Shown here piece after piece: positions 1,151-1,748 of a DNA stretch of 64,000 nucleotides. Location: the NCBI GenBank assembly GCA_002869925.2, contig NEWT02000026.1:61586-125585 (forward strand). Direction: 5' to 3'. Each line of letters begins with the position of its first letter. Positions within the stretch are counted from its first letter, which is position 1. Under the pieces are notes generated by a model. It was not told the origin of the DNA, did not search any database, and saw nothing but the letters and a program-made list of their open reading frames with translations. A program made the position numbers and the translations under genes. Origin of the DNA: Nitrospira sp. CG24A. GTDB taxonomy: Bacteria; Nitrospirota; Nitrospiria; Nitrospirales; Nitrospiraceae.

Positions 1151-1189
1151 CCGGGGCGGAGGACAAAGAAGGAAACACCTGCGCCCCGG
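1151..1189. other. Conserved intercistronic GC hairpin, copy 1
   Basis: CCGGGGCG...CGCCCCGG; near-identical copies at 51067-51105 and 53932-53969. Confidence 0.7.
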
Positions 1190-1319
1190 CTCAGTCCAAG
1201 CGAGGAGGCAGCCCGCTGGACATTGATAGATCGACAATCGTCAATGGTGTGTGCGCGAAACCGAGATCGAAGAAGGGGGCGCGAGAGGAAGCAGAACGAA
1301 GCAACCAGCCTGTGGCCCC

Positions 1320-1679
1320 TTATCCGATGAGGATGAGAGGCATCGATGGAGGGGCGCGGGGGTGAAGTACGAAAGAAGGCGATGAAGGAATTGCCCGATG
1401 AGGAGACGAGACCACCAGCCGGACCACCAGCTCTGTTGCAAACGACGCAGACTCCGGCGTCACGCCGGCATCGGTCGTGGCCTGACAGGCCCAAGCACAG
1501 AGCCCATTGTGTGGAGCGGATTCTTGCGACCCATGGTGCGCATGGCCGTTGGAGGGATCGACGTGACTCAACGCACAGCTTGCTGCCATCGCCACGAGCG
1601 AGGCATAGACCAAGGCCACGAACCCGGCGACAAGAATGGCACTTCGTGATACATGAGAACGCGTCATCAGTCTCTCCAC
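1320..1679 (-). CDS. Small His-rich LCxWxC membrane protein (DUF2946-like), copy 1
   Basis: N-terminal hydrophobic segment, His-rich stretch, LCAWACQ, C-terminal RAPP; paralogous to ORFs at 51233 and 54100. Start may be the Met at 1667. Confidence 0.7.
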   Translation of the reverse strand: MERLMTRSHVSRSAILVAGFVALVYASLVAMAASCALSHVDPSNGHAHHGSQESAPHNGLCAWACQATTDAGVTPESASFATELVVRLVVSSPHRAIPSSPSFVLHPRAPPSMPLILIG

Positions 1680-1710
1680 GATATCATTGCTATACGTGCC
1701 CTCCGATCAT

Positions 1711-1748
1711 CTGTCTACCGACACCTGCTCACGCCTACTACAGTTTCG
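1711..1748 (-). promoter_or_regulatory. Iteron promoter, class B (copy 1)
   Basis: rc: CTGTAGTAGGCGTGAGCAGGTGTCGGTAGACAG, then N17 from TAGACA to TATAGC. Confidence 0.65.

What the first reader, a model, noticed from the sequence alone, without database searches (positions are those of the whole stretch)
1151..1748. Interchangeable-cargo cassette: iteron promoter - LCxWxC protein - conserved hairpin - cargo - HTH
Three ~600-bp homologous segments (about 1132-1750, 51060-51670, 53927-54530) contain the same promoter, small Cys/His protein and GC hairpin, but differ in downstream genes: HMA protein + HTH (copy 1), cytochrome P460 + decayed HTH (copy 2), unknown + TPR + SmbP (copy 3). Copies 1 and 2 also share the distal HTH and hairpin-terminator sequence (417-453 vs 50014-50050). 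Conserved flanks with swapped centres suggest a modular system in which different metal/heme effectors sit under one control unit.
Basis: partly seen in the sequence, partly recalled or inferred. Interest (0 to 1): 0.82.

Follow-up and report, generated by a model that had tools for sequence, protein, structure and literature searches.

The report
Copper-sensing leader peptide attenuator in Nitrospira
In a nitrifying bacterium (Nitrospira), three related stretches of DNA each look like the front end of a copper-controlled operon: a promoter with evenly spaced repeats, a tiny self-stalling peptide of the kind known to sense copper, and a newly recognised pair of RNA hairpins ahead of the genes being controlled.

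Summary
In detail: three homologous ~600-nt segments, all minus strand, with different genes downstream. The 'LCxWxC protein' resembles the copper-responsive arrest-peptide uORFs CruR and CutF. It has an N-terminal hydrophobic segment, CxxxC (CAWAC), 42 residues, then C-terminal RAPP. It lies in a C>G bubble and is followed by ~90 nt of spacer. The 'GC hairpin' is a pair of hairpins (R1). An unfitted alignment from many genera recovers it, with 13 of 20 pairs showing compensatory changes. R1 occurs in 32 of 121 relatives, almost all in one family, mostly directly after CruR-like genes, and no Rfam family matched the window. The 'iteron promoter' is real: 10-bp-phased repeats before a -35/-10, with 37 of 121 genomes matching and no matches for the reversed pattern. 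'Interchangeable cargo' is only partly right. Other genera keep the same genes (HMA, P460, HTH_17, 183-aa, TPR, SmbP-like) behind one cruR-R1 head; in this comammox Nitrospira the head is triplicated and the set is split by gene loss. Most likely mechanism: copper-dependent release of ribosome stalling causes transcription termination before the metal genes. The operon-encoded BldC-like HTH_17 may bind the repeats. Regulation, its sign and HTH_17 binding are inferred, not shown.

The parts
1712..1741 (-). copy 1 promoter repeats (GTAGTAGGCGTGAGCAGGTGTCGGTAGACA); -10 TATAGC at 1689-1694, 17 bp after TAGACA
   Evidence: 2 mismatches to the family consensus. Not found by the strict sigma-70 scan
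1320..1667 (-). copy 1 CruR/CutF-like uORF, 115 aa, CAWAC, 42 residues, RAPP, 8-residue tail
   Evidence: Pfam DUF2946 sub-threshold (18.2 bits, cut-off 23.7)
1227..1319 (-). pyrimidine-rich spacer (93 nt between stop codon and R1)
   Evidence: conserved in all copies; C>G bubble 45% C / 13% G at the uORF 3' end, fading into the spacer
1143..1226 (-). copy 1 R1 tandem hairpins: P1 at 1194-1221 (loop with CCUCC), P2 at 1151-1189, then UCCUUUAC
   Evidence: CM hit 92 bits; structure
781..1083 (-). HMA-domain (MerP-like) secreted protein
   Evidence: PF00403 E 2.5e-5; MerP E 1.6e-6
494..742 (-). HTH_17 / excisionase / BldC-like DNA-binding protein
   Evidence: PF12728 E 8.6e-12; TIGR01764 E 1.3e-11; BldC HTH E 2.9e-5
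409..492 (-). distal tandem-hairpin element after HTH_17
   Evidence: weak R1 hit, 14.3 bits; shared with copy 2
51625..51654 (-). copy 2 promoter repeats
   Evidence: 3 mismatches
51233..51580 (-). copy 2 CruR/CutF-like uORF
51059..51144 (-). copy 2 R1
   Evidence: CM hit 103.7 bits
50361..50909 (-). cytochrome P460
   Evidence: PF16694 E 3.4e-24; tree
50214..50260 (-). decayed HTH_17 remnant (distal hairpin at 50004-50084)
   Evidence: 81% over 47 nt to copy 1
54493..54522 (-). copy 3 promoter repeats (perfect consensus)
54100..54447 (-). copy 3 CruR/CutF-like uORF
53924..54006 (-). copy 3 R1, followed by a run of T
   Evidence: CM hit 90.8 bits
53343..53894 (-). 183-aa secreted protein, no Pfam match; recurrent neighbour
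52185..53339 (-). TPR protein
   Evidence: PF13424
51800..52105 (-). SmbP-like small metal-binding protein
   Evidence: PF16785 E 8e-4, below cut-off
47770..48078 (-). fourth CruR-like uORF (CSWLC, RSPP); promoter repeats at 48256-48285; then HTH_17
57305..57649 (-). fifth CruR-like uORF (CDWSC, RGPP) before TonB receptor 55118-57247
62356..62664 (-). sixth CruR-like uORF (CAWAC, RAPP) before TonB receptor 59914-62232

Best explanation
Each segment is the control head of a copper operon. A promoter with 10-bp-phased direct repeats makes a transcript that begins with a CruR/CutF-like arrest peptide. With little copper, the ribosome stalls at RAPP near the end of the peptide. RNA polymerase then passes the spacer and the tandem hairpin R1, and the metal/heme genes are expressed. 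When the nascent CxxxC motif binds copper, stalling is relieved. The freed, C-rich RNA then allows termination at or near R1, by Rho and/or intrinsically at P2 and its U-rich tail. The HTH_17 protein encoded in the operons probably binds the promoter repeats. In this genome the head was triplicated and an ancestral operon was divided among the copies by gene loss. Shown here: the parts, their conservation, the RNA structure, the neighbours. Inferred: copper sensing, stalling, termination and its sign, HTH_17 binding.
For: CxxxC in all 87 motif-bearing homologues; RAPP in 66, RGPP in 18, RSPP in 3; spacing 41-42 in 82 of 87. The two Cys plus R.PP are the invariant columns of a 27-member alignment at 33% mean identity (members were chosen by that motif). 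CruR needs its Cys pair and RAPP, and acts by Rho termination in a C>G bubble (PMC9426467). CruR arrests in vitro at RAPP; RAPP and RGPP are the robust arrest motifs (PMC12992588). C>G bubbles of 45/13, 44/21 and 47/21 % lie at the uORF 3' ends here. R1: the unfitted alignment recovers both hairpins, 13 of 20 pairs with two-sided changes; in A4, 18 of 18 pairs, 134 two-sided cells against 21.5 in shuffles. The stop-to-R1 distance is 88-98 nt in the full cassettes. Promoter motif in 37 of 121 genomes, reversed control 0, mostly before CruR-like genes. HTH_17 in 34 of 37 motif genomes against 16 of 84 others. Neighbours: TonB receptors, HMA, P460, SmbP-like, redoxin. One-head ancestral order in other genera.
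Against: No expression, copper or translation data. DUF2946 score is below the curated cut-off. The Cys pair is CxxxC (as in CutF), not CxxC (as in CruR), and the spacing is 42, not 45. Some CutF-like proteins act with the opposite sign (PMC9973294). The U-rich tail after P2 is moderate in this genus and poor in others, so P2 may be a pause or Rho stop site rather than an intrinsic terminator. The strict promoter scan finds nothing there. HTH_17 co-occurrence may reflect shared ancestry of the locus. Some CruR-like genes have no R1, and some R1 copies lie after HTH_17.
Confidence: 0.72

Rival explanations
1. CutF-type switch with the opposite sign: copper prolongs stalling, the ribosome keeps R1 from hiding the ribosome-binding site of the next gene, and the genes are switched on by copper.
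For: The Cys motif is CxxxC as in CutF. Both R1 loops often carry CCUCC, which could pair with GGAGG-type ribosome-binding sites. In several loci R1 ends 2-30 nt before the next start.
Against: In copy 1 the next gene starts 67 nt after P2 and in copy 2 about 150 nt after it. The R1 start lies ~90 nt beyond the stop, too far for a stalled ribosome to unfold. The C-terminal motif is RAPP as in CruR, and the spacer is long as in CruR.
Confidence: 0.2
2. The small protein is a working periplasmic copper-binding protein; R1 is only a partial terminator that sets the stoichiometry between first and later genes.
For: His-rich, Cys-containing, exported-type protein; hairpin P2 after a gene end; R1 also follows HTH_17 in many loci.
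Against: The conserved residues are the Cys pair and the C-terminal R.PP, with the rest drifting, a pattern of arrest peptides; nearly always upstream of other genes; the relative CruR was not detected as a protein in proteomics (PMC9426467).
Confidence: 0.15
3. One reading: a modular cassette whose centre is exchanged for other cargo.
For: First downstream gene varies among heads; copies 1 and 2 share both flanks.
Against: Cargo comes from one recurring gene set behind one head in other genera; copy-2 P460 belongs to the in-operon P460 clade; HTH_17 remnant left in copy 2.
Confidence: 0.1
4. A mobile repeat (integron cassette, MITE or REP) with a hairpin end.
For: Three copies in one region; conserved hairpin.
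Against: Only three copies of the full segment and of R1 in the genome, each directly after a CruR-like gene; no integrase seen next to them; structure conserved by compensatory change across genera.
Confidence: 0.03

Closest known systems
CruR (bp2923) of Bordetella pertussis, DUF2946 copper-responsive uORF (PMC9426467)
   Same: Small exported-type protein first in an operon of copper genes; Cys pair and RAPP at nearly fixed spacing; C>G bubble at its 3' end; long intergenic region.
   Different: CxxxC rather than CxxC; spacing 42 rather than 45; DUF2946 score below cut-off; conserved tandem-hairpin RNA after it; phased-repeat promoter; several copies per genome; cargo HMA, P460, SmbP-like, TPR as well as TonB receptors.
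CutF of Rhodobacter capsulatus (PMC9973294)
   Same: CxxxC, proline-rich C-terminus, exported, followed by an RNA stem-loop before the regulated gene.
   Different: There the stem-loop hides the next ribosome-binding site and copper switches the gene on; here two hairpins lie ~90 nt after the stop and, in copies 1 and 2, well before the next start.
RAPP/RGPP arrest peptides (PMC12992588, PMC10987492)
   Same: Small exported proteins ending in RAPP/RGPP, upstream of genes on the same strand.
   Different: Arrest not tested here; the Nitrospira peptides and their RNA element are not described in the passages read.
BldC of Streptomyces (PMC5859096)
   Same: Small single-domain MerR-like winged HTH; BldC sites are direct repeats one helical turn apart, in varying number, as in the promoters here.
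   Different: Sequence similarity modest (BldC model E 2.9e-5); DNA binding by the Nitrospira protein is only inferred.

Membership tests
CruR (copper-responsive arrest-peptide uORF) | Cys pair as metal motif | tested here: met
   CxxxC in 87 of 87; CruR itself has CxxC
CruR (copper-responsive arrest-peptide uORF) | RAPP a few residues before the C-terminus | tested here: met
   RAPP 66, RGPP 18, RSPP 3 of 87; tail 1-8 residues in 86
CruR (copper-responsive arrest-peptide uORF) | fixed Cys-RAPP spacing (45, within one or two) | tested here: inconclusive
   fixed, but at 41-42 in 82 of 87
CruR (copper-responsive arrest-peptide uORF) | first gene before copper-related genes, long intergenic region | tested here: met
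   205-323 nt in the three copies
CruR (copper-responsive arrest-peptide uORF) | C>G bubble for Rho at uORF 3' end | tested here: met
CruR (copper-responsive arrest-peptide uORF) | copper-dependent ribosome release and Rho termination | not testable with these tools
   needs expression or in vitro experiments
Pfam DUF2946 (PF11162) | score above the curated cut-off (23.7 bits) | tested here: not met
   18.2, 13.8 and 15.3 bits for the three copies; 11 of 27 diverse members match at E up to 0.05
CutF-like regulators | CxxxC and C-terminal PP, exported, under 150 aa | tested here: met
   (export judged from the N-terminal hydrophobic stretch only)
CutF-like regulators | stem-loop covering the next ribosome-binding site | tested here: not met
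   P2 ends 67 nt (copy 1) and about 150 nt (copy 2) before the next start; closer in copy 3 and some other loci
Known Rfam family | match above gathering score | tested here: not met
   none in the window
BldC family | small BldC-like wHTH | tested here: inconclusive
   NF033787 23.8 bits against 77 cut-off; TIGR01764 excise above its cut-off
BldC family | binds helically phased direct repeats | not testable with these tools
   phased repeats present; binding not tested

The most novel reading that the evidence does not exclude
A family-wide two-layer copper control system of this Nitrospira family: an HTH_17 (BldC-like) regulator acting on 10-bp-phased promoter repeats, plus an arrest-peptide uORF working through a previously undescribed tandem-hairpin RNA (R1) that acts as a switchable terminator. 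In the host genus the RNA just after the uORF stop codon may pair with the 3' arm of P2 as an antiterminator (strong in 7 copies, weaker in the window's three, absent in other genera).
Probability: 0.35. Interest if true: 0.82.

Novelty: new variant of a known kind. Interest (0 to 1): 0.68.

Why it matters
Comammox Nitrospira depend on copper for ammonia oxidation and outcompete other ammonia oxidisers when copper is scarce (PMC13374858), yet how they control copper genes is not known. This finding names concrete candidate switches: six CruR-like leader peptides in one 64-kb window, a promoter motif so specific that its reversed control gave no hit in 121 genomes, and an RNA element with strong covariation that can be tested directly. 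It would also extend arrest-peptide metal sensing to Nitrospirota in detail and add a structured RNA partner to it.

Tried and rejected
Rfam at gathering thresholds: no hit. Sigma-70 and terminator consensus scans: nothing at the segments; the terminator scan allows loops of only 3-8, P2 has 15. A link with ammonia oxidation: within the genus 6 genomes have R1 and amoA, 5 R1 only, 6 amoA only, 15 neither, so R1 does not track amoA. An antiterminator made of the P1 3' arm with the P2 5' arm: 98% of cells paired but no two-sided change, so unsupported. An antiterminator made of the stop-proximal GGGACCCCGGGCGG with the P2 3' arm: strong only in part of the genus, kept as a possibility. Integron/MITE/REP reading: rejected on copy number and context. 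Copy 2 having a remnant of the HMA gene: no protein-level hit; only a start-region likeness by eye.

Full report
1. The observation. The segment at 1132-1760 has exactly three matches in its genome (3.36 Mb, 40 contigs), all within the window, on the minus strand and on one contig, at 100, 82 and 76% identity. The alignment of the three is continuous from the promoter through a small ORF and ~180 nt of noncoding DNA to a GC-rich hairpin; similarity stops right after the hairpin. The ORF is under protein-level selection (dN/dS 0.25-0.44). The shared distal parts of copies 1 and 2 are real but short (47 nt at 81% and 82 nt at 76%).

2. The small protein. A search of 120 relatives finds homologues in 69 of 121 genomes, and five places in this contig; motif and clustering analysis raises the number in the window to six. 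In 87 homologues that carry the motif, the metal motif is always CxxxC, the C-terminal motif is RAPP (66), RGPP (18) or RSPP (3), and 82 have 41 or 42 residues between them. A 27-member alignment at 33% mean identity keeps the two Cys and R.PP as its invariant columns; members were chosen by that motif, so this shows that the rest drifts rather than that the motif is universal. This is the pattern described for CruR of Bordetella pertussis, a copper-responsive uORF whose Cys motif senses copper and whose RAPP stalls the ribosome, controlling Rho-dependent termination before the next gene (PMC9426467), and for CutF, with CxxxC and a proline-rich end (PMC9973294). CruR has since been shown to arrest translation at RAPP in vitro, and RAPP and RGPP are the most versatile arrest motifs (PMC12992588). 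Two features differ: DUF2946 is only matched below its cut-off, and the Cys spacing and Cys-RAPP distance are slightly different. I therefore call it CruR/CutF-like and do not file it in DUF2946.

3. The RNA element. Between the uORF stop and the next gene lies a spacer and then two hairpins, P1 (GUCCG...CGGAC, CCUCC in the loop) and P2 (CCGGGGCGcAGG...CCUcCGCCCCGG, then a U-rich stretch in this genus). In the 17-sequence alignment both are nearly perfectly paired, with little variation. A covariance model (R1) finds 59 sites in 32 of 121 relatives and 16 of 37 genera; in a draw of 299 genomes from the phylum, 60 have it and all but two belong to the same family. On 75 sites all 18 pairs have two-sided changes, 134 cells against 21.5 expected from shuffles, and sliding the partner destroys the pairing. 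Because that alignment was fitted to the model, I repeated the test on 22 diverse sites aligned by MAFFT alone: RNAalifold recovers both hairpins, with two-sided changes in 13 of 20 pairs. The window gave no Rfam match. Most R1 sites follow a CruR-like ORF, 88-98 nt after its stop in the full cassettes.

4. The promoter. Some promoters have three or four repeats. TAGACA serves as a -35, with the best -10 at 17 bp in 45 of 55 sites (ties were resolved in favour of 17, and the strict scan does not report it). With up to 3 mismatches the motif occurs in 37 of 121 genomes and its reversed control in none. Nearly all local hits are just upstream of CruR-like genes, often in other genera. In this genome the four hits at up to 3 mismatches all lie before CruR-like genes.

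5. The genes. With a simple gene finder of my own, the recurring neighbours are HTH_17, TonB receptors, HMA, P460, SmbP-like, redoxin, TPR and others; the window's families were identified with Pfam. In other genera one cruR-R1 head precedes HMA-(HMA)-P460-HTH_17, often a second R1, then the 183-aa, TPR, SmbP-like, f10 and cupredoxin-like genes, in varying completeness. In this genome three heads precede three parts of this set. The copy-2 P460 falls in a starred clade that includes the P460s lying between HMA and HTH_17 elsewhere, and copy 2 retains an HTH_17 remnant. The economical reading is duplication of a whole operon with complementary loss: copy 1 kept HMA and HTH_17, copy 2 kept P460. 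That reading is inferred.

6. Mechanism. The uORF 3' ends lie in C>G bubbles (45/13, 44/21 and 47/21 % C/G in 78-nt windows), as reported for Rho-dependent termination after CruR. Ribosomes stalled at RAPP would shield this RNA; copper-triggered release would expose it, and R1 would be the pause or termination site. P2 could also terminate intrinsically in this genus; in other genera the U-tract is poor, which favours the pause/Rho role. A long-range pairing between the sequence just after the stop codon and the P2 3' arm is strong in several genus members (about -21 to -30 kcal/mol) but weaker in the window's copies (about -18) and not conserved elsewhere. The sign of regulation is uncertain: I give about 0.6 to repression by copper, given CruR-like RAPP and spacing, and 0.2-0.25 to induction as in CutF.

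7. HTH_17. The operons encode a small HTH_17 protein related to excisionase/BldC models. BldC binds direct repeats one helical turn apart, in varying number, as head-to-tail oligomers (PMC5859096). HTH_17 homologues occur in 34 of 37 genomes with the promoter motif and 16 of 84 without. This makes it the best candidate for the repeat-binding protein, but shared ancestry of the locus could give the same association.

8. Setting. The genome has amoA and its relatives are Nitrospira, so it is taken to be a comammox Nitrospira; close relatives are the metagenome bins RSF11 and RSF8. R1 does not track amoA within the genus. Copper limitation favours comammox over other ammonia oxidisers and its copper handling is an open question (PMC13374858). 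No paper in the library holds both Nitrospira and DUF2946.

9. Verdict. Real, coherent, and a new variant of a known kind of control. The uORF identity is well supported by motif, spacing and context; the RNA element and promoter are firmly supported as conserved features; regulation by copper and its direction remain to be tested.

Noticed in passing
window 47770-48078, 57305-57649, 62356-62664: Three further CruR-like uORFs without an R1 match, two of them heading TonB-receptor genes; the window holds six in all.
   Followed up: partly
window 59033-59062: Phased promoter repeats, with an extra repeat, upstream of a BNR-repeat gene (57696-58958) that precedes a CruR-like gene and a TonB receptor.
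   Followed up: no
window 28137-28242, 29307-29412, 38802-38875, 39714-39787: Repeated C-terminal segments (VPLPAAVWLFGSG...RRR) like PEP-CTERM sorting signals, on the same contig as exosortase/EPS-type genes (about 1.8-22 kb).
   Followed up: no
window 36953-37034 and 37547-37628: 82-nt direct repeat, 85% identical, in a region with few called genes.
   Followed up: no
window 59570-59788: Another HTH_17 homologue whose six-frame match reads through one TGA, also seen in several relatives.
   Followed up: no
L137 (JAMQPH010000835.1): A contig binned as Pyrinomonadaceae carries a 70% identical cruR; probably a misbinned Nitrospira contig.
   Followed up: no
L069 13349-13534, L134 8206-8402, L073 12509-12714, L117 15409-15924: R1 occurs in tandem (two or three copies in a row) after some CruR-like genes.
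   Followed up: partly
L132 13275-13357, L133 8747-8830, L077 1262-1345: Distal R1-like elements after HTH_17 end in CCCTTCGGGG, a short UUCG-loop hairpin in place of a U-tract.
   Followed up: no
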